Shown: one piece after another, positions 3,745 through 33,212 of the stretch
How the letters are laid out: every line of letters begins with the position of its first letter
How positions within the stretch are numbered: position 1 is the first letter of the stretch
Assembly: GCF_017464355.1 (NCBI RefSeq)
Contig: NZ_JAFUAG010000022.1
Location: forward strand, 1-39,916
Length of the DNA stretch: 39,916 nt
Reading direction: 5' to 3'
Origin: Ruminococcus sp.
GTDB lineage: Bacteria; Bacillota; Clostridia; Oscillospirales; Ruminococcaceae
Made by a program: the position numbers and the translations under genes
The notes under the pieces: generated by a model
Database searches by the model: none
Seen by the model: only the letters and a program-made list of their open reading frames with translations
Told to the model about the DNA's origin: nothing

Positions 3745-4662
3745 ATGAAAGAAATAGTCCTTAAAACCAAGGCGCTCACTAAGCGCTATAAAAAGTTCAC
3801 CGCCCTCGACAGCGCTGACCTCACTGTCTATAAAGGGGATATCTATGGCCTCATCGGCCGCAACGGCGCAGGCAAGACCACCCTTATGAAGACCATCACA
3901 GGCCTGACAGATAAGACCTCGGGCGATTATGAGATATTCGGCAAAACAGGCGCCGCCGCCGAGCGTGAGCGCCGCCGTATAGGCTGCCTTATTGAGAACC
4001 CCTCATTCTTCGGAAGCATGACAGCCTACCGCAACCTGAAATATTACTGCCTCCAGAAAGGCATAACCGACCTCTCCAAGATAGATGAGGTCCTCTCCCT
4101 CGTAAACCTCACCGAGGCCCGTGACCGTAAATTCAAACAGTTCTCCCTCGGTATGAAACAGCGCCTGGGTATCGCCTTCGCTATGCTCGATGACCCCGAC
4201 CTCGTCGTCCTCGATGAGCCTATCAACGGCCTTGACCCCATTGGTATCAGCGAGCTGCGCGATACCTTCCATATGCTCAACCGCGAGAGGGGAGTCACTT
4301 TCATGATATCTTCCCATATCCTCTCCGAGCTGTATGCCGTTGCCAACAGGTTCATCTTCATCGACAGCGGCCATGTCCTCAAAGAGCTTACCAAGGAAGA
4401 ACTTGACCTCGAATGCAGCCGCTGCCTTGTCGTAAAAACTGCCGATACCAAGGCCGCCGTCACCGTCATCGAGGATAAGCTCCATATATCCGATTATAAA
4501 GTCATCGACAGCGGCGAGATCAGGGTCTATGACCAGTCCGCCCGCCCCGATGAGCTCAACCGCGTCCTCATCAAAGCCGATGTCCCCGTTTCAGGCATTT
4601 CCGAAGCAGGCATCTCGCTGGAGGATTACTTCAAATCTTTAGTAGGGGAGGGTCAGAAATGA
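3745..4662 (+). CDS. ABC transporter ATP-binding protein, BcrA-like
   Basis: This 305-residue ATPase drives the membrane partner encoded immediately downstream. It has Walker A GRNGAGKT at residues 38-45, the signature FSLGMKQRL at 133-141, Walker B LVVLDE at 153-158 and the switch His191 in SSHILSE. After the roughly 220-residue nucleotide-binding domain comes an 80-residue C-terminal extension, as in BcrA-type bacitracin and lantibiotic-immunity exporters. AAGGAG 9 nt before the ATG fixes the start. The stop overlaps the permease start by 4 bases (ATGA), so the two are translationally coupled. The likely role is export of a peptide antibiotic or other amphiphile; the substrate cannot be read from the sequence. 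Confidence 0.9.
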   Translation: MKEIVLKTKALTKRYKKFTALDSADLTVYKGDIYGLIGRNGAGKTTLMKTITGLTDKTSGDYEIFGKTGAAAERERRRIGCLIENPSFFGSMTAYRNLKYYCLQKGITDLSKIDEVLSLVNLTEARDRKFKQFSLGMKQRLGIAFAMLDDPDLVVLDEPINGLDPIGISELRDTFHMLNRERGVTFMISSHILSELYAVANRFIFIDSGHVLKELTKEELDLECSRCLVVKTADTKAAVTVIEDKLHISDYKVIDSGEIRVYDQSARPDELNRVLIKADVPVSGISEAGISLEDYFKSLVGEGQK

Positions 4663-17131: not shown

Positions 17132-18187
17132 TCATCTTACCGCTACCAGCGAATGTGCATTTATGGCAGAAAGATATATTATGTCTATTATAAGCTGTAT
17201 TATCGCAAATCTCATGACTACCTGTGTGTCCGACCAGCCCTTGTTCTTCCTGCAGTGGTCGTGTAAAGGTGTCCTTATGTCCTTCATGAAGTTCTTCATC
17301 TTCAGGAAACGTATAAAGCTTACCTTCAGCAGGCTCAGCCCGCCGTCCAGTATTATCACTATGCACCCGGGTATAAAGCCGAAGGGATTGCCCGAAACAA
17401 GGAACATTATCGCCAGGAAAACACCCAGCGCCCTTGAACCCGCATCGCCCATCAGCATGGTCGAAGGCGAGCAGTTGAACCAGAGATAAGCCGCCAGCGT
17501 GGCCAGCATGATGACAGGGGTAAAGTCCACAAAGCGTAAGCCCACAGCCAGCGATACCACTCCCCGTGCTATCACAAAGCCCATCATTACTACCATTACC
17601 AGCGTAGCACACAGCCCGTCCACACCGTCGGTGCAGTTGGTCACGTTTATGGCGGCCCATACCAGTACTCCCGCCAGTATAATGTATATCACCGCAGGTA
17701 TGTGCAGCGTTATGTGCAGAAGAGGCAGCCCCACAGGCACCATAGCCCTCTCAGCAGGCACCGTGGAGGAAAAATACCACTGGTTCACCGCTACACCCAG
17801 AGATATCACCAGGTCCAGCAGACCCTTTTTCAGATTTCCCCAGGGCACCTTGGCCGCGTCGTCCAGATATCCCGTTATCATCGCCAGGTATATCAGCACC
17901 AGATATATAAGGTATTCCATATCCAGCGGAACGAACAGCGCCGCCGTCAGACAAAAGGTCGTTATAAATAGCAGCCCGCACCCTCTTGCCTTGCCCTGGC
18001 TGAGTTCACCGTTCACCGCGAACTCACGTCCCTGATCCTTGGGCAGTATCCTCCTGAAAAATTTCAGCGCAAAAAAGCAGGCCCAGAAAGCGAAGGCTAT
18101 CATCAGTACCATATAAAGAGAGTACTTCGTCAGCGCGCTCTCGTCAAAAAAATCAAAGGTCTTTCCGAAAAAAAGTCTGAAAATCAT
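17132..18187 (-). CDS. MraY-like polyprenyl-phosphate sugar-1-phosphate transferase
   Basis: The 351-residue protein has about ten transmembrane helices and the MraY/WecA family motifs: GYLDDAAKV (Asp109 and Asp110), NVTNCTDGVDGL (181-192), FN...MLMGDAGSRALG with Asp248, and TPLHDHCRKNKGW (306-318). The HHH of classical MraY is here H-D-H. MraY makes lipid I for peptidoglycan. This copy lies outside any visible division/cell-wall cluster, next to lipid genes, and has a slightly altered nucleotide loop, so it may be a second MraY or an enzyme for another wall polymer. The start is ATG at 18187 with AAAAGGAAG upstream. It is the first gene of the minus-strand envelope group. Confidence 0.85.
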   Translation of the reverse strand: MIFRLFFGKTFDFFDESALTKYSLYMVLMIAFAFWACFFALKFFRRILPKDQGREFAVNGELSQGKARGCGLLFITTFCLTAALFVPLDMEYLIYLVLIYLAMITGYLDDAAKVPWGNLKKGLLDLVISLGVAVNQWYFSSTVPAERAMVPVGLPLLHITLHIPAVIYIILAGVLVWAAINVTNCTDGVDGLCATLVMVVMMGFVIARGVVSLAVGLRFVDFTPVIMLATLAAYLWFNCSPSTMLMGDAGSRALGVFLAIMFLVSGNPFGFIPGCIVIILDGGLSLLKVSFIRFLKMKNFMKDIRTPLHDHCRKNKGWSDTQVVMRFAIIQLIIDIIYLSAINAHSLVAVR

Positions 18188-18227
18188 TTACATCTTCCTT
18201 TTAAATAAAAATACTCATACATCATAT

Positions 18228-18256
18228 ATTATACTACATCTTAAAGAAAAATGCAA
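18228..18256 (-). promoter_or_regulatory. Promoter of the MraY-like gene
   Basis: On the minus strand TTGCAT (18256-18251) is spaced 17 nt from TATAAT (18233-18228), 41 nt before the start codon. It is divergent from the peptide operon and lies 92 bp from the operator array at 18348. Confidence 0.78.
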
Positions 18257-18347
18257 ATTTTACAGCGTGGCATTTTGCACAAAATTTCCCCATTTCCGCC
18301 CTCCTGCCATATTTTGCAGAAATCTCCCGCCGCCCCGCCCTGTCTCA

Positions 18348-18448
18348 CTGTGTATATACACACCCCTCCCCCGCATACACAGTTGACCTCTGTATATACA
18401 CAGTTCACCCCCACATATACACAGCTATCCCCCTGTATATACACAGTT
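18348..18448. promoter_or_regulatory. Array of five TGTATATACACAG operator repeats with 21-bp pitch
   Basis: Five copies of a site whose consensus is TGTATATACACAGTT lie here. The shared ACACA(G/C) cores start at 18358, 18377, 18398, 18419 and 18441, so the steps are 19, 21, 21 and 22 bp, about two helical turns, and the sites face one side of the DNA. Copies 1, 3 and 5 are full; 2 and 4 are degenerate on the left. The GTATATAC core fits the general GntR-family operator pattern. The spacers are C-rich (CACCCC, CTATCCCC). The same half-site recurs over the -10 box of the promoter at 18548. Confidence 0.75.
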
Positions 18449-18547
18449 CACCGCCTGAAAATGCTCTTGTTTTGTGCAGATCATACATCGAAATACCCTG
18501 CGCCTGCCTTCTGAATTATGCACCTATACGATTGTGTCTCCACCCTA

Positions 18548-18590
18548 TTGACAAAACTGCACAAACTGTGTATACTGTATACATACAGTT
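18548..18590 (+). promoter_or_regulatory. Promoter of the small-peptide/ABC operon with overlapping palindrome
   Basis: TTGACA (18548-18553) and TATACT (18571-18576) are 17 nt apart. An inverted repeat with arms AACTGTGTATAC and GTATACATACAGTT (18564-18590) covers the -10 box. Its arms match the repeats of the upstream array, so one repressor could bind both and block RNA polymerase. The leader is about 80 nt to the first ATG. Confidence 0.8.
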
Positions 18591-18663
18591 AAGGCTGCAA
18601 TAACAGTCATAACAGTAATAACAGAAACAAGACAACAAAGCATATCAAAAGGAGAGAAACACC

Positions 18664-18831
18664 ATGAAAAACAAGAAAGTGACCGCACTCAGGATAGCCG
18701 CTGCAGGCTCAATGATCACAGGCATCGTCGCCTCAGCCTTCACCATGTTCGCCATGACCCCCTGCGTGGCAGCCACCATATTGCTGTTCAATGCCTCAAA
18801 TGCCGAAGCTAAGAAAAACGCAGAAACGTAA
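18664..18831 (+). CDS. Small membrane peptide 1
   Basis: This 55-residue peptide has a basic start (MKNKKVTALR), two hydrophobic segments (about 11-30 and 33-43) parted by a Pro-Cys, and a polar Lys-rich tail. AAAGGAG upstream supports translation. It resembles the next peptide (shared K-VTALRI near the start and NASN...KKN near the end), so the two are tandem paralogues. No double-Gly leader or signal-peptidase site is clear. I do not recognise a family. As the first gene of an operon that ends in an ABC exporter, it may be an exported peptide, an immunity peptide or a small partner of the transporter. Confidence 0.75.
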   Translation: MKNKKVTALRIAAAGSMITGIVASAFTMFAMTPCVAATILLFNASNAEAKKNAET

Positions 18832-18850
18832 AACAGAAAGGAGCATCACT

Positions 18851-19033
18851 ATGAAAGACAACAGAACAGACAAAAGAGTAACAGCCCTCAGGATAATAGG
18901 CATTGCCTCCCTAGCCATGGGATTTATAGCCCTTGCCACAGGCGCTCCCAATTCCACCATAGCCTGCTTCTGCGGCGCAGGCACCTGTATCAACGCCTCG
19001 AACGTCATAAACAAGAAAAACAAAGAAAGATAA
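18851..19033 (+). CDS. Small membrane peptide 2 (paralogue of peptide 1)
   Basis: This 60-residue peptide opens with MKDNRTDKRVTALRI, has a hydrophobic helix (about 14-32), and then a short second segment with the Cys-rich IACFCGAGTC, ending NASNVINKKNKER. The Cys cluster could bind metal or form disulfides; peptide 1 has only one Cys there. AAAGGAG precedes the ATG at 18851; longer in-frame starts lie inside peptide 1 and lack a ribosome site. The function is unknown. Confidence 0.75.
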   Translation: MKDNRTDKRVTALRIIGIASLAMGFIALATGAPNSTIACFCGAGTCINASNVINKKNKER

Positions 19034-19055
19034 TTATAGCAAAGGAGAAACAAAA

Positions 19056-19250
19056 ATGAAACTGAAGACCAACAAGAGAGATATCATCACAACGATCATA
19101 TTAGTTATATCAGGCGTCCTGGGCGGCGTCCTCGTAAATGTCCTCGAAGCCTACGGCGTACCCGTAAAGGTCACAGCAGGCATACTTCTCGCACTGACCC
19201 TCGGCGCCAACATCTTCCGCCGTGCGTACCCCCGGCGGTATAAGGAATAA
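19056..19250 (+). CDS. Small membrane peptide 3
   Basis: This 64-residue protein has a basic N-terminus (MKLKTNKRD), two transmembrane helices (about 10-29 and 36-53) and a basic tail (RRAYPRRYKE). The gap after peptide 2 is only 22 nt and contains AAAGGAG. It looks like a hairpin membrane protein with both ends in the cytoplasm. I do not recognise a family. Confidence 0.72.
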   Translation: MKLKTNKRDIITTIILVISGVLGGVLVNVLEAYGVPVKVTAGILLALTLGANIFRRAYPRRYKE

Positions 19251-19293
19251 ACTGCCGTTCACACCTCAGAATTTACCGTTCGCACGATTTTAG

Positions 19294-19322
19294 TTGCACT
19301 TGCCCAAAAGATAGTATATAAT
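19294..19322 (+). promoter_or_regulatory. Internal promoter before peptide 4
   Basis: TTGCAC (19294-19299) and TATAAT (19317-19322) are 17 nt apart. The roughly 95-nt leader that follows is almost only A, G and C, with repeated ACAAAAGAAAGACAACA units, and ends in AAGGAGG. It would allow the ABC part of the cassette to be expressed apart from peptides 1-3. Confidence 0.72.
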
Positions 19323-19425
19323 AAAGACACAGAGAGAAAGAGAACAAAAGAAAGACAACAAAAGACAAAGAACAAAAGAAAGACAACAGAGAAAGAGATA
19401 ACAAGACAAATAAGGAGGCATCATC

Positions 19426-19620
19426 ATGAAAGAGAGAAATATTTCAAAGGTATGGTCACTGTCACTTCTCGCGACAGGTATCTTCGCTATACTGCTCGGT
19501 GCAGCAGGCATGACAGATACAGCTGTCGGGGATACCCTGATAAGAGTCCTCGGCACAGCCGAGATACTGGCGCTGCCCGTCCTCGCCTTCACCACAGTGC
19601 TGAAAATAAAGAACAGATAA
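19426..19620 (+). CDS. Small membrane peptide 4
   Basis: This 64-residue protein has a charged start (MKERNISK), two hydrophobic helices (about 9-28 and 38-59) and a basic end (KIKNR). AAGGAGG lies 8-9 nt before the ATG. It is not clearly similar to peptides 1-3 beyond its two-helix plan. The function is unknown; its position just ahead of the ABC transporter suggests a linked role. Confidence 0.72.
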   Translation: MKERNISKVWSLSLLATGIFAILLGAAGMTDTAVGDTLIRVLGTAEILALPVLAFTTVLKIKNR

Positions 19621-19679
19621 GCACCCCGAAGAAACAAAGAACAAGAGAAAGGTCACCCGAAACGTAAAGGAGAATAACA

Positions 19680-19916
19680 ATGAAAGCAAATACAAAGCGC
19701 AATGTCATCAAAGCCGTCAAAGGTCTGCTCGCAGCCGTACTTATCGCTGTGCTGTACTTCCTGCTCAATAACAGGCTCCCCGCTTCGGGGGACGTTATGG
19801 GGCTTGTCGCACTGGCTGCAGCCTGCACCTCCATAAGCTTTGGCGGATTCATGATAGATAATACTGATACAGAGGACCTCCTTGGCTTTGAACCCCTGGG
19901 AGAGCCCCTCAGATAA
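19680..19916 (+). CDS. Small membrane protein 5
   Basis: This 78-residue protein has a basic N-terminus (MKANTKRN), two hydrophobic helices (about 12-28 and 39-58) and an acidic C-terminal tail (DNTDTEDLLGFEPLGEPLR). AAAGGAG precedes the ATG. The next gene (ABC ATPase) starts 10 nt after its stop, so they are co-transcribed. The acidic tail would face the cytoplasm, where it could contact the ATPase; that is inference. Confidence 0.72.
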   Translation: MKANTKRNVIKAVKGLLAAVLIAVLYFLLNNRLPASGDVMGLVALAAACTSISFGGFMIDNTDTEDLLGFEPLGEPLR

Positions 19917-19926
19917 GAGGTCACTT

Positions 19927-20685
19927 ATGGAAAATGAAAAGGTACTGGAAGTCAGAGGACTTTCCAAACAATATAAAAAAGGTGTCTACGCTTCCGAGAA
20001 AGTCACCTTCGATGTGCATAAAGGCGAGATATTCGCCCTCATAGGCCCCAACGGCGCAGGCAAGACCACCACTATCCGCATGATATCCACCCTCCTGCAG
20101 GCCACCGAGGGCGACGCAGTTATCAGCGGCCACAGTATCCTCACCGAACCCGAGAACGTCAGGCGCTGTATAACCTACCTGCCCGATGAAGCAGGCGCCT
20201 ATAAAAATATGAAAGGTATCGACTACCTTAAGTTCATGGCCGAGCTATATGCCGATAATAAACAGCAGGCGGAAGAATATGTAAAAACAGGCCGCGAGAT
20301 CTGCGAGCTCGGCGACAGGCTCAACGATAAGATAGCCAGCTATTCCAGAGGTATGCAGCGCAAGCTCCTCCTTGCCCGTGCTATCATGTCAAAGCCCGAT
20401 CTCGCTATCCTCGATGAACCTACCTCAGGCCTTGATATCATCAATGCCCTTGAGATAAGAAGAATGATAAGATCTCTGGCCAGGGACGGCATGAGCTTCC
20501 TGCTCTCCTCCCATAATATGCTGGAGATAGAGTACGTTTCCGACCGCGTGGGCATAATCGCCCAGGGGCACCTCCTGGAAACAGGCACCCCTCGGGAGCT
20601 CATCAGTAAATACCGCGCCGATAACCTCGAAGATGTCTTCGAGCTGGTAGTCATGAGAAAAGAACTTAAGGAGGGTAAAGCATAA
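19927..20685 (+). CDS. ABC transporter ATP-binding protein, NatA-like
   Basis: The 252-residue ATPase has Walker A GPNGAGKT (40-47), signature YSRGMQRK (139-146), Walker B LAILDE (159-164) and switch His196 in SSHNMLE. It resembles NatA and other ATPases that work with ABC-2 permeases having a large outer loop. The ATG at 19927 is preceded by GAGG; a longer frame from 19882 overlaps gene 5 and has no ribosome site. The stop TAA shares its last A with the ATG of the permease (TAATG), so translation is coupled. It energises export of an unknown substrate, perhaps one of the small peptides. Confidence 0.9.
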   Translation: MENEKVLEVRGLSKQYKKGVYASEKVTFDVHKGEIFALIGPNGAGKTTTIRMISTLLQATEGDAVISGHSILTEPENVRRCITYLPDEAGAYKNMKGIDYLKFMAELYADNKQQAEEYVKTGREICELGDRLNDKIASYSRGMQRKLLLARAIMSKPDLAILDEPTSGLDIINALEIRRMIRSLARDGMSFLLSSHNMLEIEYVSDRVGIIAQGHLLETGTPRELISKYRADNLEDVFELVVMRKELKEGKA

Positions 20686-21986
20686 TGAAATTCCGTACCC
20701 TCTTTTTTAAAGAACTCCGTGAGATGCTCAGCGCCCAGACTATCCTGGTCATGGTCATCTCCGTCTTCGTGCTTGCCTTTGCAGGCAAGGCCATGTCCAA
20801 AGCGGTGGAGGATAACGCCGAGACCATGATGGACCTGACTATCTGCGACAGGGACGATACCGAGTTCACCCGTAATATGCTGAAATTCCTGCGCTCCAAT
20901 CTGGCTCAGCTCGACGGCGAAGTCACCGTCATCGATGTCACCACCGATGACTATGCCGCAGAACTCAAAAAGGCGGACGCAAAAAGCGTCATCATAATCC
21001 CCGAGGGCTTCACCGAAAGCGTGCAGAACAGCGAGCCTGCCACAGTAAAATTCGTCCAGCGGCTTTCCTCGCTGGCCACCTTCTCCAACCTCAATACAGG
21101 TTCCCAGGTGGCAGTCGAATACCTCTCTGCCGCCGTCAAGGACGTTGTTTTCAGCGCCAAGGTAGCAGGGGGCAAGCTCACCAATACCGAGGTAAGCTTC
21201 CTCAATGACCCCATACACCTGGAAGAATCCACCGTCGTAGCCGATAAAAGCGAGGATATCTCCGCTTCCATAGTAATGTCCCTCTGCTCCGCACAGAACA
21301 TGGTAGTACCTATCATGATGTTCGTGCTGGTCATGATGTCCTCGAATATGATACTCAACGCAGTCAGCACCGAAAAGATAGATAAGACCCTTGAAACTCT
21401 GCTTTCCGCCCCTATCTCCCGACTTTCCGTCATAGCGGCAAAAATGCTTTCCGCAGCAGTGGTCGCGGCAATGCAGGCAGCTGTGTATATGATAGGCGCC
21501 AGAAGCATGATGAACGGTGTCCTTGATAACGTCAGCGGCGATACAGGCTACAGCGAGGCCATGAAGAACTTAGGTCTTACCATGGACGCAGGCCAGTATG
21601 TGATGGTAGGCATACAGATGTTCCTGTCCATACTCATAGCGCTGTCCATCTCCCTTGTACTGGGTGTACTTGCCAGAGATTCCAAAAGCGCCCAGACACT
21701 CACTCTGCCTATCATGATGTTCACCATGATACCTTATATGCTTTCCATGTTCGTTGACATCAGAACTATGTCACCCATGGTAAAATACTTTGTCTATGCG
21801 ATACCCTTCTCCCATGCTTTCATGGCTTCGGAGAATGCTATGTTCGGCAACACCGCCTTGTATATAGGCGGCCTCATTTACCAGACCATATTCCTTGCCG
21901 TATGTATGTTCATAGCATTACGCATATTCATGAGTGACCGCATCTTCACCATGACCTTAGGCGGAAAGAAGAAAGTCAATTTATGA
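20685..21986 (+). CDS. ABC-2 type permease, NatB-like
   Basis: This 433-residue permease has one N-terminal transmembrane helix (about 20-37), an extracytoplasmic domain of about 165 residues, then five or six helices in the C-terminal half (from about 206 on, including AQNMVVPIMMFVLVMMSS, LSIALSISLVLGVLARD and IYQTIFLAVCMFIALRIFM). This is the NatB/YhgE-like ABC-2 layout seen in exporters of sodium, drugs or peptides. It starts on the last base of the ATPase stop codon. The EKIDKTLETLL motif between helices is a typical coupling-helix region of this family. The substrate is not visible. Confidence 0.9.
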   Translation: MKFRTLFFKELREMLSAQTILVMVISVFVLAFAGKAMSKAVEDNAETMMDLTICDRDDTEFTRNMLKFLRSNLAQLDGEVTVIDVTTDDYAAELKKADAKSVIIIPEGFTESVQNSEPATVKFVQRLSSLATFSNLNTGSQVAVEYLSAAVKDVVFSAKVAGGKLTNTEVSFLNDPIHLEESTVVADKSEDISASIVMSLCSAQNMVVPIMMFVLVMMSSNMILNAVSTEKIDKTLETLLSAPISRLSVIAAKMLSAAVVAAMQAAVYMIGARSMMNGVLDNVSGDTGYSEAMKNLGLTMDAGQYVMVGIQMFLSILIALSISLVLGVLARDSKSAQTLTLPIMMFTMIPYMLSMFVDIRTMSPMVKYFVYAIPFSHAFMASENAMFGNTALYIGGLIYQTIFLAVCMFIALRIFMSDRIFTMTLGGKKKVNL

Positions 21987-22106
21987 TCGCGCGGCGAGCG
22001 TGCTGTGATCCGTAGCTTGGTTTTGCACAGCACAGGGCAGTAAACAAAGGCCGCCCCGCCCCCCCTGTAAAGAAAACACCCCCGACAACAGAAAGAGAGA
22101 GACAAC

Positions 22107-22274
22107 ATGAAAAAATTCATAAAAAAGATAACCGCAGTTATAGCCGCCGCAGCCGTTGCCCTCGCAATGCTGTCATCAGCGTGCGCACTCAATATCGAGC
22201 ACGATGAGCATGGAACTCAGTGCCCGTCCATCGGTCAGTGCCGTGCGCTCATACCCCTGCGGCTGACATTATAA
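22107..22274 (+). CDS. 55-residue secreted lipopeptide/lipoprotein at the end of the ABC operon
   Basis: The peptide has a strong signal sequence (MKKFIKKITAV, Ala-rich core) with a lipobox LSSAC, so Cys26 should be lipid-modified and the mature chain is 30 residues with Cys at 26, 39 and 45. The mature part (HDEHGTQCPSIGQC) is polar, ending in a hydrophobic PLRLTL. The upstream GAAAGAGAGAG is a weak ribosome site. It lies 120 nt after the permease and is followed at once by a terminator, so it closes the cassette. It may be a substrate, a sensor or an immunity lipoprotein for the exporter. I do not recognise a family. Confidence 0.65.
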   Translation: MKKFIKKITAVIAAAAVALAMLSSACALNIEHDEHGTQCPSIGQCRALIPLRLTL

Positions 22275-22280
22275 CAGCAA

Positions 22281-22305
22281 AGCCCCGCAAAAACGGGGCT
22301 TTTTT
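22281..22305 (+). terminator. Rho-independent terminator of the peptide/ABC operon
   Basis: AGCCCCG (22281-22287), loop CAAAAA, and CGGGGCT (22294-22300) followed by TTTTT. The next gene starts only 20 nt later, so the downstream gene may rely on read-through. Confidence 0.9.
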
Positions 22306-22324
22306 CTGAGAACAGGAGATAGCC

Positions 22325-23044
22325 ATGATAACAGATAACATCAAAGTCATAAAGCATAGCTGCGTCCGTATCGAATGCGGCATAGTCATCTATATCGACC
22401 CCTTTATGGTCGAGGGCGCTCCCCATGACGCTGACCTCGTCCTCGTCACCCACCCCCACTTCGACCACTTCTCACCACCCAATATCCGTAAGGTCGCTAA
22501 ACAAGGCACCGTAGTCGCAGGCCCCTATATGCTCAAACGAGCTAAGGCTGTCATCGGCGGCTGCTCCCTCGTCCCCCTCTCAGCAGGGCAGAAAACCAAC
22601 CTCTGCGGCATAAATATCGAAGCCGTCCCCGCCTATAACCTTAAGCCTGCCCGCCCCCATAAGCGTTTCCTCGGTTGGCTGGGCTATGTCCTTGATATCG
22701 GCGGAGAAAAGGTCTACATAACAGGGGATACCGATGCCACCCCCGAAAGCAAAGCCGTTAAATGCGATGTCCTCATGCTCCCCGTGGGCGGCAGCAACTA
22801 TACCATGAATGCCGCCGAAGCCGCTGACCTCGCCAATACCATAAGACCCAAAACAGTTATCCCTATCCACTACGGCGCCCTCCTTGGCGGAAGACAGGCT
22901 GCCCAAAAATTCAAAGACCTCGTGTCCCCCGATATCCATACCGATATCCGACCCACCGTCTACAGCAATGCCATGGTCTATGCCTATTCTATCGCCGCCG
23001 CAGCTATAGCGTTGCTCCTTGTTGTCTATTTTGCTCTATTGTGA
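22325..23044 (+). CDS. Metallo-beta-lactamase-fold hydrolase with C-terminal membrane anchor
   Basis: The 239-residue protein has the metal site THPHFDHF (His43, His45, Asp47, His48), then TGDTDATPE and IPIHYG, typical of UlaG/UPF0173-like MBL-fold hydrolases that use two metal ions. The substrate is unknown. The last roughly 20 residues (SIAAAAIALLLVVYFALL) form a hydrophobic helix, unusual for this family, which would tether the enzyme to the inner membrane face. AGGAG precedes the ATG. No promoter lies between the terminator at 22305 and this gene. The TGA stop overlaps the first operator of the next operon. Confidence 0.87.
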   Translation: MITDNIKVIKHSCVRIECGIVIYIDPFMVEGAPHDADLVLVTHPHFDHFSPPNIRKVAKQGTVVAGPYMLKRAKAVIGGCSLVPLSAGQKTNLCGINIEAVPAYNLKPARPHKRFLGWLGYVLDIGGEKVYITGDTDATPESKAVKCDVLMLPVGGSNYTMNAAEAADLANTIRPKTVIPIHYGALLGGRQAAQKFKDLVSPDIHTDIRPTVYSNAMVYAYSIAAAAIALLLVVYFALL

Positions 23045-23208: not shown

Positions 23209-23769
23209 ATGAAACAAGACAGCAAAACTATCCGCGAACTCTACGCTAAGTATCAGAAACCCCATATGACCCGTGCCGAGCGTCAGGAGCTTATGGAAAA
23301 GATCTACCGTGAGCGCTATAAAGATGACCCCCGCAAACCCGTCTCCCAAAGGGGACAGGCCTTGATGAACCTCATCTGCGGTGTCATCATCTTCGCTATG
23401 GCCATGCTCATGACCCTCGGTATCAAGGCCGATAATATCCCCTCATCAGTGCCTCTGGCAGCCATTGTGCTGTTCATGGCCGTTATGGGATACTTCGAGG
23501 TAAGGCATAAAAAAGAACCCGCCGATGAGCTTTCAAAGGAGCTTATGCTCAAAGCCACCTCCTATTCCGCCTATGCCATGATAATAACGGTCTGGGCGCT
23601 GGGCTTCATCACCACCCTCATCAGTAATAAGAGAGGGGAAGAGTTCATCAGGGTGAACAGCGATAACCTAATGGGTCTTACAATGCTGCTGCTGGGCGTA
23701 TACCTCATAGTCAGAAATGCCGCCTACCTCCTGCTGGATAAAGCCCCCGCAGAAGACGAGGAGGAGTGA
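23209..23769 (+). CDS. Four-helix membrane protein A of the XRE operon
   Basis: This 186-residue protein has a charged, helical N-terminal 45 residues, then four hydrophobic helices (about 52-72, 82-95, 119-137 and 152-171), with EPADELSKELMLKATSYS between helices 2 and 3 and a very acidic end (DEEE). The next two genes share this plan, including the (D/E)-(L/M)S...KA...S loop and DEEE end. ACGGAGG precedes the ATG. The family resembles uncharacterised membrane proteins often encoded beside small XRE regulators; I assign no function. The stop region GAGGAGGAG is also the ribosome site of the next gene. Confidence 0.82.
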   Translation: MKQDSKTIRELYAKYQKPHMTRAERQELMEKIYRERYKDDPRKPVSQRGQALMNLICGVIIFAMAMLMTLGIKADNIPSSVPLAAIVLFMAVMGYFEVRHKKEPADELSKELMLKATSYSAYAMIITVWALGFITTLISNKRGEEFIRVNSDNLMGLTMLLLGVYLIVRNAAYLLLDKAPAEDEEE

Positions 23770-23771
23770 CC

Positions 23772-24293
23772 ATGAAAAATACCGTAAAGTCCCCCGAGGA
23801 GATAAGGGCACAGTATAAAAAAGATAAGCGCAAGCCCATGAGCGTCCGCGCCCACACAAAGCTGAATGCCATAACAGCCCTGTTCGCAGGCCTCTTCTGC
23901 TTCTATACGGTCTTCTCAGCCGATGTCATAGGTATGCAGGATCAGGATCACCCTGCCGACCTGGCCATATTTGTGGTGCTGATGATAGGTATGTTAGTCA
24001 GCGGCTTCATCTGGCTGATGAACCTGGCTTCCTATAAAATGGAACCCGATGACGAGCTTTCCGAACGGATAAGGGGCAAGGCCAACGGTATAAGCTTCGT
24101 GGTCTGGCATATCATCGTCATCAACCTGTTCTTCGTGGCCGAGCTTGTGAAAAAAGGCGCCATGTCCGCCATGTTCAGGCCGGGGAACTTCTTCATGCTC
24201 TTCATAAGCGGCATACTTACCTACGACGCCGCAAGGCACTTCACCTTCCTTATCCTTGACAGACCCGAAAAGTCCGATGACGAGGAGGAGTGA
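23772..24293 (+). CDS. Four-helix membrane protein B
   Basis: This 173-residue paralogue of the genes on both sides has an N-terminal EIRAQYKKDKRKPMSVRAHT, four hydrophobic helices (about 35-50, 64-85, 106-124 and 135-156), a MEPDDELSERIRGKANG loop and a DDEEE tail. The ATG at 23772 sits 7 nt after AGGAGG; the GTG at 23766 is too close to it. Protein C is highly similar, including nearly identical DNA over the first 100 bases, showing a recent tandem duplication. Confidence 0.83.
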   Translation: MKNTVKSPEEIRAQYKKDKRKPMSVRAHTKLNAITALFAGLFCFYTVFSADVIGMQDQDHPADLAIFVVLMIGMLVSGFIWLMNLASYKMEPDDELSERIRGKANGISFVVWHIIVINLFFVAELVKKGAMSAMFRPGNFFMLFISGILTYDAARHFTFLILDRPEKSDDEEE

Positions 24294-24295
24294 CC

Positions 24296-24814
24296 ATGAA
24301 AAATACTCCAAAGTCCACCGAAGAGATCAGGGCACAATATAAAAAAGATAAGCGCAAGCCCATGAGCGTTCGCGCCCACACAAAGCTCAAAGCCATAACA
24401 GCACTGTTTTCAGGCCTGTTTTTCTTCTACATGGTATTCTCGGGAGATGTCCTCGGCATGAATGATAAGGAAGACCACCCCGCTGATATCGCCGTAATGT
24501 TCGTGCTGATGACAGGTATGTTAATCAGCGGCTTCATCTGGCTGATGAACCTGGCTTCCTATAAAATGGAGCCTGATGACGAGATGTCCGCCCGTACAAG
24601 GGACAAGGCAAACGGTGTTTCGTTCTTTGTATGGTACCTGGCAGTGTTCCCGCTGCTGATGGTCATGGAGAAAGTTAAAAACGGCTCGGTGTCGCAGCTG
24701 CTCAGAGGGAGCTTTTATCTCATATTCATCAGCGGGCTGCTGATATACGATGCATTGAGGCATTTCATGTTCCTTATGCTTGATAAGCCCGACAGGGCAG
24801 ATGAGGAGGAATGA
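24296..24814 (+). CDS. Four-helix membrane protein C
   Basis: This 172-residue protein is closely similar to protein B (EIRAQYKKDKRKPMSVRAHT is identical, as is GFIWLMNLASYKMEPDDE). The divergence is concentrated in the third and fourth helices, where the outer-facing parts may differ in specificity. It ends in ADEEE. The start is ATG at 24296 after AGGAGG. Its stop overlaps the first possible ATG of the XRE gene, so they are coupled. Confidence 0.83.
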   Translation: MKNTPKSTEEIRAQYKKDKRKPMSVRAHTKLKAITALFSGLFFFYMVFSGDVLGMNDKEDHPADIAVMFVLMTGMLISGFIWLMNLASYKMEPDDEMSARTRDKANGVSFFVWYLAVFPLLMVMEKVKNGSVSQLLRGSFYLIFISGLLIYDALRHFMFLMLDKPDRADEEE

Positions 24815-26324: not shown

Positions 26325-29300
26325 GTGAAGACATTGAAAAAGAATACTAAGGTCATAGTAACGGTAGCAGTGGCAGCGTCGCTGCTGGTCACAGCGATGA
26401 TAATGGAGATAGTTCTGGTTTTCAGGATGACTACCGAGCAGGCCAAGGAAGCAGGCAGCAGCAAACTCAGCGAAGTCAGCAGCAGGCTGGACGACACCAT
26501 AAACGAGGCCCGTGAGGAAGTCATGTCCCTGGCCATGGGGGCGCAGCTGTACCTTGATGACCGCGCCCAGCTTGAAGGCTATCTGCGCACCCGCAAGAAA
26601 GACCTCAGCGAGAGGACAGGGGGCTCCTGCTACAATGCCTATGCCGCAGGAGAGGGCTGGGCTGTCATACCCGATTTCGATGCCCCCGCCGATTACGTCG
26701 CCACAGAGCGCAGCTGGTATGCGGGAGCCAAGCGCAGCATGGGTACCCCCTACGTCACCGACCCCTACGTCGATGCCGCCACAGGGGATCTCTGCTATAC
26801 CGTTTCCGTTATCCTCAATGACGGTGATACAGTAGTAGCCCTTGACTATTCCATGGACACCGTCCGTTCCTACATAGATGAAATGTATACCGATGACGGC
26901 CACGAAGCTGTCATCGTCACCGCCCAGGGTACTATCGCAGGCTGTACCTCCCCCGACCTGGTGGGAAAGGATATGCTCACCGAGCTGCCCGATTATACAG
27001 GCATTTTCTCCCTGGCCAAAAACAGCGATGCCCCCGTGCATATAAGCCGTCGGGGCGAGAACCTCTTTGCTGTCCGTTCAGGCTTCGGCTGGTACCTCAT
27101 AGTCTCCGAGAACGACCTTTCCCTCTACCGTTCTTCCTATACCCAGATACTGGTAATGACAGGGGTCTCCCTTATCATTCTCATCATAATGATACATATG
27201 TACCTCACCACCGCCCGTGCGGCCAAGCAGGCAGAGGATACCCTGGCAGGCAGCGAAAAGTTCCTCAAAGACCTTACGGCAGGCGTGCAGGAACCCCTGC
27301 GCCGTATCATCACAGGGGCAAGCCCCGAGAACGTCCGCAGCTCCACCGACTATGAGCTTGAATTCGAGAATATCCGCGAAGCAGGCAGCCAGCTCAGCGA
27401 AATGATAGGCGAGATAAACTCCTATAACAGCATAGTCAGCACCGAAAAGAAAAACAAAGAGAAAAAGAAGATAAAAAATACCACCGTCCTTACCCTTGAC
27501 CGCCACTTCAAGCGGCTCATAAGTATAGCCCTGGCGCTGGTCTTCATCATGAGCGCCTATATAAACTTCACCTCCGCCTTCCGCTTCGGCAAGGGTCAGA
27601 TGAAGGAGAAACTGGGCGTACATACCGCCCGTCTTCAGGAATGGGTCAGCTCCCAGATGAGCATACTGGATATGTTCTGCTCCGTCATCTCCACCTCCCC
27701 CGAAATGCTCGATGATTACGAGGGCATGGTCAGGTACCTTGACGATATCACTATCCAGTACCCCGAGATATCCGCCAGCTATATCACCAACCCCTCCTGG
27801 GAACATACCGTTATCATGAACAACGGCTGGGAACCCGATGATAACTGGCACGTCGAGGACAGAGAGTGGTATAAGCAGCTGGAGACCTCCAAGAACGGCA
27901 GGTGTATCTCCGCCCCCTACTACGATGAACAGACAGGCCTCTACTGCGTCACATTCGCCGAAAGGGTCTGCGATGCCCGCACAGGCGCCTATCTGGGCAG
28001 CTTCGGTATCGACTTCTATATGGATAAACTGGTGGATATCCTTGGCTCCAGCTACGGCGAGAACGGCTATGCCTTTATCTCCGATGCCGAGGGCAGAATG
28101 GTCGATCACCCCTACGGCGCCTACCGCATGACAGGCTCCGATGTCACCAATATAGCCGAACAGCCCTACGTTTCCGTCAAGACCGACGGCGATGATATGG
28201 CTTTCATCATGGACTACGACGGCAAGCTCCGTGCCCTGCTGGCACAGTCCGTCCCCGAGGCAGGCTTCACCGTCTACCTGGCAGAAAACATAACCAGCGT
28301 ATTCAGCGGCGTCCTCCTCTACGGACTCATCTGCCTGGCCATACTCCTTGTATGCACCGTGGCAGTCTATATGCTGACAAATAACCTCATAGCCATGCAG
28401 GAGGAAGCCAACCGCCAGCTGAAACTCTCAGCCGAAGCCGCTATCGCCGCCGATGAAGCCAAGAGCAGCTTCCTCGCCCAGATGTCCCACGAGATACGCA
28501 CCCCCATAAATGCCGTCCTCGGCATGAATGAGATGATACTCCGTGAAAGCGACGACGAGGATATCAAGGACTATGCCGAGAATATCCGTTCCGCAGGCAG
28601 AACTCTGCTCTCACTCATAAACTCTATCCTTGATTTCTCCAAGATAGAAGACGGCAAAATGAAGATAATCCCCGCCGCCTACAGCACCTCCTCCATGATA
28701 AATGACCTCGTGACCTCCGTGGCAGCCCGTGCCGCCGCCAAGGACCTCACCCTCAATGTCAAGGCCGACCCCGACCTGCCCGCCAAGCTCAAAGGCGATG
28801 ATATGCGCATAAAACAGGTCATATCCAATTTGCTGACCAATGCGGTCAAGTATACCGAAAAGGGAAGTGTCACCCTGACCATAAAGGCCGACGACCGTAC
28901 CGATGACAGCATACAGCTCTATGTCGAGGTGGCCGATACAGGCATAGGTATCAAGGAAGAAGACCTGGGCGCCCTCTTCGAGACCTTCCGCCGCCTGGAC
29001 GAAACACGCAACCGCAGTATCGAAGGCACAGGCCTGGGTATGTCCATAGTCACCAAGCTCCTTGAAATGATGGACAGCGAGCTCCATGTGGAAAGTATCT
29101 ACGGTGTGGGCAGTACCTTCTGGTTCCGCCTGCCCCAGCGTATCTCCGACCCCTCTCCTATGGGTCAGTATAACCACCGCAAGCACCTGCGCTCCAGGGA
29201 GAAAGACCGCCATATCTATGCCCCCGAAGCTAAAGTGCTGGTGGTGGACGACAACGAAATGAACATCAAGGTGGCCGTCAGCCTCATGAAGCTCTACGGC

Positions 29301-30053
29301 ATAGTCCCCGAAACAGCCTCCTCAGGCTACATGGCTCTGTCCATGATAAGGGAAAAGCGCTACGATGTCATCCTCCTTGACCATATGATGCCCGGCATGG
29401 ACGGCATCGAAACTCTCATGCGTATCGAGGAAGAGGGTATGCGTGACGCTGAAACAGCTATCATCGCCCTTACCGCCAACGCAGTGGTCGGCGCCAGGGA
29501 TACCTACATCTCAGCAGGCTTCGATGACTACCTTACCAAGCCCATCGAAAGCGCCCAGCTGGAAAAAATGCTGAAAAAATATATCCCCGCCGACCTCGTC
29601 ACCATGGTCAGAACAGGAGAAAAGAAAAAACAGCAGGAGGAAACCCCCGCTGACAGCTTCACCGTAGATGAACTGAAAAAACTCTGTGAGCTCTGCCGTG
29701 ACCTCAACCCCCTGCTGGGTCTTGAATACTGCATGGGTTCGCGGGAATTCTACCTCGATACCCTCGCAGGCTTTGCCGAAGCTGATAAGCGTGAAAAGCT
29801 CATATCAGCCTTTGCCGCCTGCGATGCCGAGAACTACCGCATAACCGCCCACAGTATCAAAAGCGCCGCCCTTACCGTAGGCTACCAGCTTTTGTCAGAC
29901 CATGCCAAAGCCCTGGAATTTGCCGCCCGTGACGGCGATACCGACTACATCGCCCATCACCACGAAGCTTTCCTGGAAGAATACACCAATGCCCTGACCT
30001 CAGCCAAAACCGCCGCAGAGCATTTTTCAGGGAAAGAACAGCCCCGTGGGTAG
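26325..30053 (+). CDS. Double-sensor hybrid histidine kinase (Cache x2, HisKA, HATPase, REC, Hpt)
   Basis: This 1242-residue membrane sensor has a TM helix (about 9-33), an extracellular Cache-like domain (about 70-265) and a second TM helix (274-293). A degenerate HisKA-like segment (310-372) carries Ala319 where the phospho-His should be. A third TM (397-413), a second Cache-like domain (about 430-655) and a fourth TM (660-684) follow. Then come an intact HisKA (His722 in MSHEIRTP), a HATPase with NLLTNAVKY, DTGIGI and GTGLGMS, a receiver domain (970-1085, Asp1019 in LLDHMMPGMDG) and a C-terminal Hpt domain (His1176 in AHSIKSAA). It should run a multi-step phosphorelay; no output regulator is adjacent. 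GTG at 26325 or TTG at 26334 is the start; AAGGCGGGTGA suits the TTG better by spacing. It appears to have arisen by fusion of two sensor kinases. Confidence 0.92.
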   Translation: MKTLKKNTKVIVTVAVAASLLVTAMIMEIVLVFRMTTEQAKEAGSSKLSEVSSRLDDTINEAREEVMSLAMGAQLYLDDRAQLEGYLRTRKKDLSERTGGSCYNAYAAGEGWAVIPDFDAPADYVATERSWYAGAKRSMGTPYVTDPYVDAATGDLCYTVSVILNDGDTVVALDYSMDTVRSYIDEMYTDDGHEAVIVTAQGTIAGCTSPDLVGKDMLTELPDYTGIFSLAKNSDAPVHISRRGENLFAVRSGFGWYLIVSENDLSLYRSSYTQILVMTGVSLIILIIMIHMYLTTARAAKQAEDTLAGSEKFLKDLTAGVQEPLRRIITGASPENVRSSTDYELEFENIREAGSQLSEMIGEINSYNSIVSTEKKNKEKKKIKNTTVLTLDRHFKRLISIALALVFIMSAYINFTSAFRFGKGQMKEKLGVHTARLQEWVSSQMSILDMFCSVISTSPEMLDDYEGMVRYLDDITIQYPEISASYITNPSWEHTVIMNNGWEPDDNWHVEDREWYKQLETSKNGRCISAPYYDEQTGLYCVTFAERVCDARTGAYLGSFGIDFYMDKLVDILGSSYGENGYAFISDAEGRMVDHPYGAYRMTGSDVTNIAEQPYVSVKTDGDDMAFIMDYDGKLRALLAQSVPEAGFTVYLAENITSVFSGVLLYGLICLAILLVCTVAVYMLTNNLIAMQEEANRQLKLSAEAAIAADEAKSSFLAQMSHEIRTPINAVLGMNEMILRESDDEDIKDYAENIRSAGRTLLSLINSILDFSKIEDGKMKIIPAAYSTSSMINDLVTSVAARAAAKDLTLNVKADPDLPAKLKGDDMRIKQVISNLLTNAVKYTEKGSVTLTIKADDRTDDSIQLYVEVADTGIGIKEEDLGALFETFRRLDETRNRSIEGTGLGMSIVTKLLEMMDSELHVESIYGVGSTFWFRLPQRISDPSPMGQYNHRKHLRSREKDRHIYAPEAKVLVVDDNEMNIKVAVSLMKLYGIVPETASSGYMALSMIREKRYDVILLDHMMPGMDGIETLMRIEEEGMRDAETAIIALTANAVVGARDTYISAGFDDYLTKPIESAQLEKMLKKYIPADLVTMVRTGEKKKQQEETPADSFTVDELKKLCELCRDLNPLLGLEYCMGSREFYLDTLAGFAEADKREKLISAFAACDAENYRITAHSIKSAALTVGYQLLSDHAKALEFAARDGDTDYIAHHHEAFLEEYTNALTSAKTAAEHFSGKEQPRG

Positions 30054-31284: not shown

Positions 31285-31638
31285 TGGTGGAGATGAGGAG
31301 AGTCGAACTCCTGTCCGAAAGCCCATTCACACGAATTTCTACGAGTCTAGTCTGTTAAGCGGCTTGCGCCCGTTCCCTCCCCGCAGGCAAACAGACAGGC
31401 CAAACGGTTCGGTAGGCTGTAGTACATCAGCAGGTCACAGCCGTCGCCTGCCGACGTTCACCACTGATCGACGCCTTTACCCAAGCCGTGGTACTCTCAG
31501 GCAAGACGGGCTGCCCTTAGGCTGCCATTGCAAAATTATCGTTGTCGTCTAATTTTAAAACGTACGCCGTTTTAGGAGAGTGCGCTCCTCCACTCGCTTA
31601 TCGTCCTTCAAGACCCCCGTCGAAACCTTTACATCCCC
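31285..31638 (-). ncRNA. ssrA: Transfer-messenger RNA
   Basis: The 354-nt RNA starts GGGGATGTAAAGGTTTCGAC, and its 3' end reads GTTCGACTCTCCTCATCTCC followed by ACCA. GGGGATG and CATCTCC form the acceptor stem. The tag frame on the minus strand (31549-31517) encodes DDNDNFAMAA then TAA. With the charged Ala the tag is probably (A)DDNDNFAMAA; a reading that starts upstream at a GCG codon is less likely. It rescues stalled ribosomes with SmpB, whose gene lies 1.1 kb upstream on the same strand. No clear -35/-10 pair precedes it; a GATAAT is only 4 nt from the mature 5' end, so the RNA may be processed from a longer transcript. Confidence 0.95.
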
Positions 31639-32738: not shown

Positions 32739-33212
32739 TCAGAAGTTCTGCCTGTCCTTCAGCGCCCTTTCGATCTCGCGGTTCGCCGCCTTTCTGGCCA
32801 TGTCGTCCCGCTTGTCGTGGAGCTTCTTGCCCTTGCAGAGCCCCAGCGCCAGCTTGACCCTGCTGCCCTTGAAATACAGCGACAGCGGTATCAGCGCCAG
32901 ACCTTCCTGCTGTACCTGGCCGAAAAGCCTCATTATCTCCCTTTTGTGTAGCAGCAGCCTGCGTACCCGCCTGGGGTCCTTGTTGAATATGTTGCCCTGT
33001 TCATAGGGACTTATGTGCATACCCTTGACCCACATCTCGCCGTCATCGACACTGCACCAGCTGTCCTTGAGGTTAACGCCCCCCTTGCGGATAGACTTTA
33101 CCTCAGTACCCACCAGCTCAATGCCGCATTCAATGGTCTCCAGTATGAAATAGTCGTGCCGCGCCTTGCGGTTATCGGCTATCTGTTTGGTGCCTTTTTT
33201 GTCGATCGCCAC
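32739..33212 (-). CDS. smpB: SsrA-binding protein SmpB
   Basis: The 157-residue protein binds the tRNA-like end of tmRNA and delivers it to stalled ribosomes. It shows [22 protein letters not shown] and GVNLKDSWC at the N-terminus, then [10 protein letters not shown], and [15 protein letters not shown], with a basic tail [22 protein letters not shown] that enters the mRNA channel. All are family hallmarks and the length is normal. The start is a GTG at 33212 with AAAGGAGG 8 nt upstream. It has its own consensus promoter and is followed by a coupled membrane protein and then ssrA. Confidence 0.97.

What the first reader, a model, noticed from the sequence alone, without database searches (positions are those of the whole stretch)
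18664..22274. Cassette of five two-helix peptides, an ABC-2 exporter and a Cys-containing lipopeptide
Five tiny membrane proteins (55-78 residues, two of them paralogues, one with a CFCGAGTC cluster) precede a NatAB-like exporter. A 55-residue lipobox peptide with three Cys closes the operon before a terminator. The set has its own repressor-type promoter. None of the small proteins belongs to a family I recognise. The layout fits an undescribed peptide export, envelope-stress or self-immunity system.
Basis: inference. Interest (0 to 1): 0.75.

Follow-up and report, generated by a model that had tools for sequence, protein, structure and literature searches.

The report
Repressor-controlled exporter with membrane microproteins
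In Ruminococcus albus and its close relatives an old membrane exporter sits behind a string of tiny, fast-changing membrane proteins and under a DNA switch identical to the one in front of an unlinked repressor-and-transporter operon, so it is probably one arm of a cell-envelope response with small proteins of unknown function.

Summary
Five small frames are real proteins, each with two hydrophobic helices, ahead of an ABC-2 exporter pair; selection is purifying where it could be measured. The exporter is old (natB in 28 of 29 genus genomes). The peptides are not obligatory partners: the p1/p2 family is in 10 of 29, one clade, only at this locus. The promoter is the main finding. A 23-bp operator over its -10 box occurs twice, unchanged, in each of those 10 genomes: before this cassette and before an unlinked operon with a YtrA-type GntR repressor and an ABC transporter, usually with small membrane proteins too. 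The same 10 genomes hold the closest repressor orthologues; G018, which lacks the operator, lacks the orthologue and keeps only p5. In GTDB, 90 of 111 matches to this operator type have a YtrA-type gntR within 200 bp downstream. A second, LytTR-type promoter lies inside 6 of 11 cassette loci. The closing peptide is not a convincing lipoprotein; it looks secreted. Best reading: a NatAB-like exporter captured by a YtrA-type envelope-stress regulon, with lineage-specific microproteins as modulators. Regulation is well supported, function inferred. New variant of a known kind.

The parts
18348..18446 (.). Distal array of operator-like palindromes (CTGTATATACACAG type; starts 18348, 18388, 18433)
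   Evidence: 26 such elements (up to 2 mismatches) in the upstream stretches of 20 operator sites (280 bp each, one 176 bp), against 5 in 240,106 bp of the rest of the loci. 5 of 20 stretches had none at this cut-off; 8 of 20 have one starting 131-133 bp before the core operator. The consensus was chosen after seeing the window.
18548..18576 (+). Main promoter, TTGACA-17-TATACT
   Evidence: 11 of 12 consensus positions; the scan as a whole is not above shuffles; the -35 and -10 boxes are seen in all 10 cassettes with the operator.
18566..18588 (.). Core operator CTGTGTATACTGTATACATACAG (YtrA-GntR type), overlapping the -10 box
   Evidence: of 22 matches with up to 3 mismatches in 29 genus genomes, 20 are perfect, two in each of 10 genomes; the backward control pattern matched once; 90 of 111 GTDB matches to a slightly degenerate form have a YtrA-type gntR within 200 bp downstream.
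18589..18625 (+). Leader with repeated ACAG half-sites
   Evidence: 20 of 37 columns invariant in 10 cassettes; differs from the leader of the gntR operon. ACAG 18 and 27 bp after the right half-site in 11 of 11 clade loci; L040 deviates.
18664..18831 (+). p1, 55-aa two-helix protein, p1/p2 family
18851..19033 (+). p2, 60-aa two-helix protein, CxC and ASN motifs
   Evidence: (15 family copies in 10 of 29 genomes, all in this cassette).
19056..19250 (+). p3, 64-aa two-helix protein
19254..19322 (+). Second, LytTR-type promoter: GCCGTTCAC-12-ACCGTTCGC-10-TTGCAC-17-TATAAT
   Evidence: Read: same element in window and L032, L033, L034, L039, L040 (6 of 28 loci); in 263 held loci (1.68 Mb, overlapping) the 27 hits are all copies of these six.
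19426..19620 (+). p4, 64-aa two-helix protein
19680..19916 (+). p5, 78-aa two-helix protein next to natA
   Evidence: low-confidence model.
19927..20685 (+). natA, ABC ATPase, 252 aa
   Evidence: PF00005 E 7.8e-28.
20685..21986 (+). natB, ABC-2 permease, 433 aa
   Evidence: PF12698 E 2.3e-29, in 28 of 29 genus genomes.
22107..22274 (+). L, 55-aa peptide with a signal sequence, probably secreted (not a convincing lipoprotein)
   Evidence: full-length homologues in 5 of 29 genus genomes, all after natB; four further partial hits (E 1.4e-4 to 9.3e-4) elsewhere were not followed.
22282..22305 (+). Intrinsic terminator, stem GCCCCG/CGGGGC then T6
   Evidence: Read from the sequence; not listed by the scan.

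Best explanation
A NatAB-like ABC-2 exporter, old in the genus, was captured in one clade (R. albus and relatives) by a YtrA-type GntR repressor that sits in an unlinked operon with its own ABC transporter. The repressor binds the operator over the -10 box, helped by half-sites and a distal array, and shuts both operons. A cell-envelope signal, by analogy with B. subtilis YtrA a disturbed lipid II cycle, releases it. The operons then supply transporters together with small two-helix membrane proteins that probably dock on the transporters or membrane and tune them. A second LytTR-type promoter can raise p4-p5-natAB-L alone. Shown by computation: genes, selection, operator identity, its link to YtrA-type repressor genes, a single clade, the second promoter's geometry. 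Inferred: DNA binding, the inducing signal, the microproteins' role, the transport substrate.
For: Of 22 operator matches with up to 3 mismatches, 20 are perfect, two in each of 10 genomes; the cassette copies were also seen by reading the upstream DNA of 11 cassette loci, 10 of which have it. The other copy heads gntR and ABC genes, with small membrane proteins in 8 of 10 genomes. The GntR orthologue at 90% identity or more is in exactly the 10 genomes with operators and p1/p2. G018 lacks operators and orthologue and keeps only p5 at this locus. 90 of 111 GTDB operator matches have a YtrA-type gntR within 200 bp downstream; 15 of the 21 others are this clade. The two leaders differ while the operator is the same, so a recent copy does not explain it. 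Cassette loci form one clade of the natB tree (100/99). One relative has a PspC protein as first cassette gene. B. subtilis YtrA controls an ABC operon with the small membrane protein YtrG and a second operon ywoBCD, both induced by cell-wall inhibitors (PMC12772383, introduction and passages).
Against: No expression, binding or phenotype data. Operator, repressor and peptides co-occur in one clade, so the 10 of 10 match is about one gain plus one loss, not ten events. The 23/23 invariance is by construction (sites were picked by the exact word). The microproteins of the two operons are not shown to be homologous, and two second operons (L092, L094) showed none. B. subtilis ytr mutants showed no consistent antibiotic phenotype (PMC12772383 abstract). 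The inner promoter means natAB could be made without p1-p3.
Confidence: 0.6

Rival explanations
1. Pmt-like peptide export: the two-helix peptides are the cargo of NatAB and also release the GntR repressor, as phenol-soluble modulins do for PmtR in S. aureus.
For: A YtrA-type repressor, an ABC-2 exporter and several small helical peptides occur in one regulon; PSMs directly relieve the GntR-type repressor of their exporter (PMC5080381, abstract and section 9). The p1/p2 family varies in copy number (four tandem copies in L040).
Against: natAB exists without p1/p2 in 18 of 28 natB-bearing genus genomes (17 with none of p1-p5 recognisable, G018 with p5 alone). Two hydrophobic helices with mostly basic ends look like resident membrane proteins. 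natA scores 103 bits against PmtA's cut-off of 350.
Confidence: 0.17
2. Peptide-signal loop: L is a secreted peptide sensed through a LytTR regulator that activates the inner promoter for p4-p5-natAB-L.
For: LytTR direct repeats with the published geometry 9-12-9, about 10 bp, -35 (PMC6193735 passages). All 5 loci with full-length L have this promoter, the sixth (L039) has a different 47-aa peptide with a hydrophobic start, and the 5 cassettes without the promoter have no L at the locus. Six LytTR genes are in the genome.
Against: Few independent events on the tree. The responsible LytTR regulator was not identified. LytTR promoters need not involve a peptide.
Confidence: 0.1
3. Plain NatAB-type cation or drug exporter operon; the small frames are minor passengers with no shared role.
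For: 17 of 28 natB loci have no recognisable p1-p5 upstream; gene content of the cassette varies between species.
Against: Purifying selection, keeping of p1/p2 in 10 of the 11 loci of the clade, and small membrane proteins also in the second operon in 8 of 10 genomes.
Confidence: 0.08
4. Bacteriocin and self-immunity cassette.
For: Small helical peptides beside an exporter.
Against: No bacteriocin or processing family at cut-off among the ten window proteins scanned; one and the same promoter and operator in 10 species-level genomes.
Confidence: 0.05

Closest known systems
Bacillus subtilis YtrA regulon (ytrGABCDEF and ywoBCD)
   Same: YtrA-type short GntR, ABC transporter, a small membrane protein (YtrG), a second unlinked operon under the same repressor (PMC12772383, introduction and passages).
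   Different: Here the second operon carries a NatAB-like exporter and up to five two-helix proteins; distal operator array; LytTR-type inner promoter. Homology of the small proteins to YtrG was not tested.
YtrA of Sulfolobus acidocaldarius
   Same: Repressor with just two targets, own operon and a distinct locus for a membrane protein; extra half-sites around the core (PMC6746942, abstract and section 17).
   Different: Archaeal; the abstract names a putative membrane protein at each locus and no ABC transporter.
PmtR and PmtABCD of Staphylococcus aureus
   Same: GntR-type repressor, ABC exporter, small helical peptides (PMC5080381, abstract and section 9).
   Different: The peptides there are secreted cargo; here they look membrane-resident; repressor and exporter are unlinked.
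NatAB of Bacillus subtilis
   Same: ABC ATPase plus ABC2_membrane_3 permease. That natAB there answers to NatR, a LytTR regulator, is recalled; my paper search did not confirm it.
   Different: No regulator or kinase frame directly beside it in the ORF lists; substrate unknown.
LytTR regulatory systems
   Same: Direct-repeat promoter geometry (PMC6193735 passages).
   Different: No LytTR regulator at the locus; none assigned.

Membership tests
YtrA-type GntR regulon | Short GntR (about 120 aa, reduced C-terminus) in an operon with ABC genes | tested here: met
   124-aa GntR, PF00392 E 6.4e-13; solved relatives include short GntR chains of 121-134 aa as well as longer ones; followed by a 281-aa ABC ATPase and permeases. 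This is the unlinked operon, not the window.
YtrA-type GntR regulon | Long operator with far-apart half-sites at the promoter | tested here: met
YtrA-type GntR regulon | Repressor binds the operator | not testable with these tools
   Needs EMSA or footprinting.
YtrA-type GntR regulon | Induction by lipid II-cycle inhibitors (as in B. subtilis) | not testable with these tools
   Needs expression data.
NatAB exporter | ABC_tran ATPase plus ABC2_membrane_3 permease | tested here: met
NatAB exporter | Sodium export | not testable with these tools
   Needs a transport assay; among the NCBIfam rows shown none reached its cut-off (best 25 of 206 shown for natA).
Pmt peptide exporter | PmtA-type ATPase at the curated cut-off | tested here: not met
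   103 bits against a cut-off of 350.
Lipoprotein (for L) | Lipobox with L/V/I at -3 and G/A/S at -1 | tested here: not met
   -1 is V in 4 of 5 homologues, -3 is S or F in 5 of 5 (motif recalled).
LytTR-activated promoter | Two 9-bp direct repeats 12 bp apart, about 10 bp before the -35 | tested here: met
   Window 19254-19322 and 5 relatives.
LytTR-activated promoter | A LytTR protein that binds it | tested here: inconclusive
   Six LytTR genes in the genome, none assigned.
YtrG | Homology of p1-p5 to YtrG | not tested
   The YtrG sequence was not fetched.

The most novel reading that the evidence does not exclude
A modular 'microprotein stress operon': a YtrA-type repressor derepresses two ABC exporters at once, each with its own rapidly evolving set of two-helix microproteins acting as interchangeable exporter subunits or adaptors, while a secreted peptide and a LytTR regulator add a positive-feedback promoter inside the cassette.
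Probability: 0.15. Interest if true: 0.75.

Novelty: new variant of a known kind. Interest (0 to 1): 0.5.

Why it matters
Small two-helix proteins are easily missed, and YtrG, the small protein of the B. subtilis YtrA regulon, has no known function (PMC12772383 abstract). This clade gives a comparative test: the same switch, two transporters, and microproteins that come and go while the switch stays frozen. It also names two operons to read together in a rumen fibre degrader under envelope stress.

Tried and rejected
Rejected: lipoprotein reading of L; obligatory link of peptides and natAB; plasmid-borne relatives of p2 (no match in 72,556 plasmid records); an Rfam element at 18000-22500 (none at gathering score). 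p1/p2 and p5 families in the wider family: 396 genomes each, only the first 14-16 candidates per genome scored; outside the genus 2 and 1 weak hits at E 2e-4 to 5e-4, taken as chance and not followed. Solved relatives of natB: none by sequence. Literature: the listings showed no description of this cassette; YtrA with Ruminococcus albus gave 0 papers. These cover open-licence PMC papers only. A general scan for LytTR geometry without the repeat consensus gave many chance hits and did not name a regulator; one LytTR receiver-kinase pair (L264) has similar repeats beside it but pointing away from its gene. The 9-bp half-site ladder is only partly general: an extra CTGT 9 bp upstream in 23 of 67 and ACAG 18 bp downstream in 9 of 67 loci outside the clade (of the 80 loci used there 11 are the clade and L153 and L204 were left out).

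Counts that lean on chosen rows: dN/dS is quoted only for pairs with dS under 1.5. Alignments A1-A3 were built from loci in which they were then searched, so presence there is by construction; absence elsewhere is the result. Sites were picked by the exact 23-bp word. A search with L also gave four partial weak hits in G013, G018, G019 and G026, not counted. One search looked at 80 of the 111 operator loci; at all 111.
Full report
What is there. None of the six small proteins reaches a Pfam or NCBIfam cut-off. natA is an ABC ATPase and natB an ABC2_membrane_3 permease.

The small frames are genes. Relatives of p1/p2, p3, p4 and p5 lie in the same place in related species, in differing sets, while natA keeps 86-93% identity. 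dN/dS is below 1 in every pair with usable dS: 0.10-0.61 in 31 of 66 p2-family pairs, 0.16-0.34 in 6 of 36 p5 pairs, 2 of 6 p4 pairs and 1 of 10 p3 pairs; p1 was not tested alone. The p1/p2 family mostly keeps a CxC motif and an ASN motif; p1 itself and the G009 member lack the CxC. All five have two hydrophobic stretches, and p2 folds as a hairpin in prediction. Content varies: four tandem p2 copies in L040, a PspC protein first in L032 (PF04024, E 5.4e-21), only p5 left in L033.

They do not always accompany the exporter. natB is in 28 of 29 genus genomes, once each. The p1/p2 family is in 10 of 29, 15 copies, every one in this cassette. In a sample of 396 family genomes it is confined to this genus apart from two weak hits, and p5 apart from one. 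On a natB tree the 10 cassette loci and G018 form one clade, support 100/99. So the cassette was most simply gained once.

The switch. The cassette promoter is TTGACA-17-TATACT with a 23-bp operator over its -10 box. In the window's genome the operator occurs only twice with up to 3 mismatches. The other copy heads an unlinked operon: small membrane proteins, a 79-aa GntR-like protein, a 124-aa GntR, an ABC ATPase and permeases. Over 29 genus genomes, 10 have two perfect copies and 19 have none; G003 and G013 have a further 3-mismatch copy before another YtrA-type gntR, and the backward control pattern matched once, in G013. Small membrane proteins precede gntR in 8 of the 10 second operons; none was seen in L092 and L094. 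The leaders after the operator differ between the two operons. The GntR-124 orthologue is present at 90% identity or more in those same 10 genomes, at 84% in G014, and at 54% or less elsewhere. G014 has a diverged operator before gntR and ABC genes, without peptides. G018, inside the cassette clade, lacks operators and orthologue and keeps only p5 at this locus.

The operator is of YtrA type. A slightly degenerate form was scanned over GTDB genome contigs: 111 stretches. In 90 of 111 a homologue of GntR-124 starts within 200 bp downstream, 75 of them at 40-59 bp. Of the other 21, 15 are the R. albus clade (8 natAB cassettes, 7 gntR operons whose gntR lies further down), 2 are cut by the contig end (L145, L216), and 4 are L153, L177, L204 and L214. 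In L177 the operator precedes a 309-aa membrane protein gene. Upstream of the operator lies a distal array: 26 palindromic elements in 20 upstream stretches (5 of the 20 have none) against 5 in 240 kb of the rest; 8 of 20 have one starting 131-133 bp before the operator. Most YtrA regulons in print have one operon and single sites (PMC4494728, section 12), so two operons with arrays are unusual. Extra half-sites that add to binding are known for Sulfolobus YtrA (PMC6746942, section 17).

A second promoter. Between p3 and p4 the window has GCCGTTCAC-12 bp-ACCGTTCGC-10 bp-TTGCAC-17 bp-TATAAT (19254-19322). The same element is in L032, L033, L034, L039 and L040, that is 6 of 28 natB loci including the window, before p4 or p5, and nowhere else in the loci then held. 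This is the geometry described for LytTR-activated promoters (PMC6193735 passages). The genome has six LytTR genes, one of them followed by a weak DUF3021 match, below its cut-off; none could be assigned.

The last peptide. Full-length L homologues are in 5 of 29 genomes, all after natB; four partial weak hits elsewhere were not followed. Their hydrophobic start ends in V-C-A or A-C-A, which fits signal peptidase I better than a lipobox (recalled motifs). All five loci have the LytTR-type promoter, the sixth such locus has a different 47-aa peptide, and the five cassettes without the promoter have no L there. The tree allows few independent events, so this is a lead only.

How it most likely works. 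GntR-124 holds both operons shut. An envelope signal lifts it. In B. subtilis the YtrA operons answer to inhibitors of the lipid II cycle, include the small membrane protein YtrG, and act on cell-wall synthesis rather than drug survival (PMC12772383, abstract, introduction and passages). I infer the same class of signal here. The microproteins probably sit in the membrane and tune the exporters. Cargo or inducer roles, as for phenol-soluble modulins and PmtR (PMC5080381, abstract and section 9), remain possible but fit less well, because natAB exists without p1/p2 in 18 of 28 natB-bearing genomes of the genus.

Limits. All of this is sequence evidence. Ten genomes of one clade are not ten events; the independent support is the loss in G018, the difference between the two leaders, and the GTDB-wide link between operator and YtrA-type genes. 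No claim about substrate is made.

Noticed in passing
L068 (G000:C28), and L090-L098: The gntR operon carries a second, 76-86 aa GntR-like protein that is little more than the DNA-binding domain, in 9 of the 10 genomes (not G009/L094), next to the 124-aa repressor.
   Followed up: partly
window 18515-18533 and the same offset in relatives: A conserved block (about TTGTGCA..TATAC) roughly 15-33 bp before the -35 box of both operons, not explained by the operator.
   Followed up: no
L099, L100: G003 and G013 have another YtrA-type gntR/ABC operon with a 3-mismatch operator directly before gntR.
   Followed up: partly
L177: The operator precedes a 309-aa membrane protein gene (CPBP-protease-like by eye) with no gntR found downstream, a possible further regulon member in another lineage.
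   Followed up: no
L032, L033, L034, L040, after natB: A conserved 50-56 aa cytosolic-looking protein lies between natB and L in four relatives and is not in the window's ORF list there; no Pfam match for the L032 copy.
   Followed up: partly
window 31285-31638 (-): tmRNA gene (tag DNDNFAMAA), with a SmpB-like frame at 32739-33212 (name by eye).
   Followed up: partly
window 23209-24814: Three neighbouring membrane proteins of 174-186 aa, two of them close paralogues in tandem (23766-24293 and 24290-24814), followed by an XRE-type regulator (by eye); the first has weak DUF6442/DUF3796 matches below cut-off.
   Followed up: no
window 26325-30053: A 1242-aa hybrid sensor kinase frame whose first part looks, by eye, like two sensor halves in tandem.
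   Followed up: no
L264 near 4337-4370: Repeats ACCATTCAT-12-ACCATTCAT, like those of the inner promoter, beside a LytTR receiver and GHKL kinase pair but pointing away from it.
   Followed up: partly
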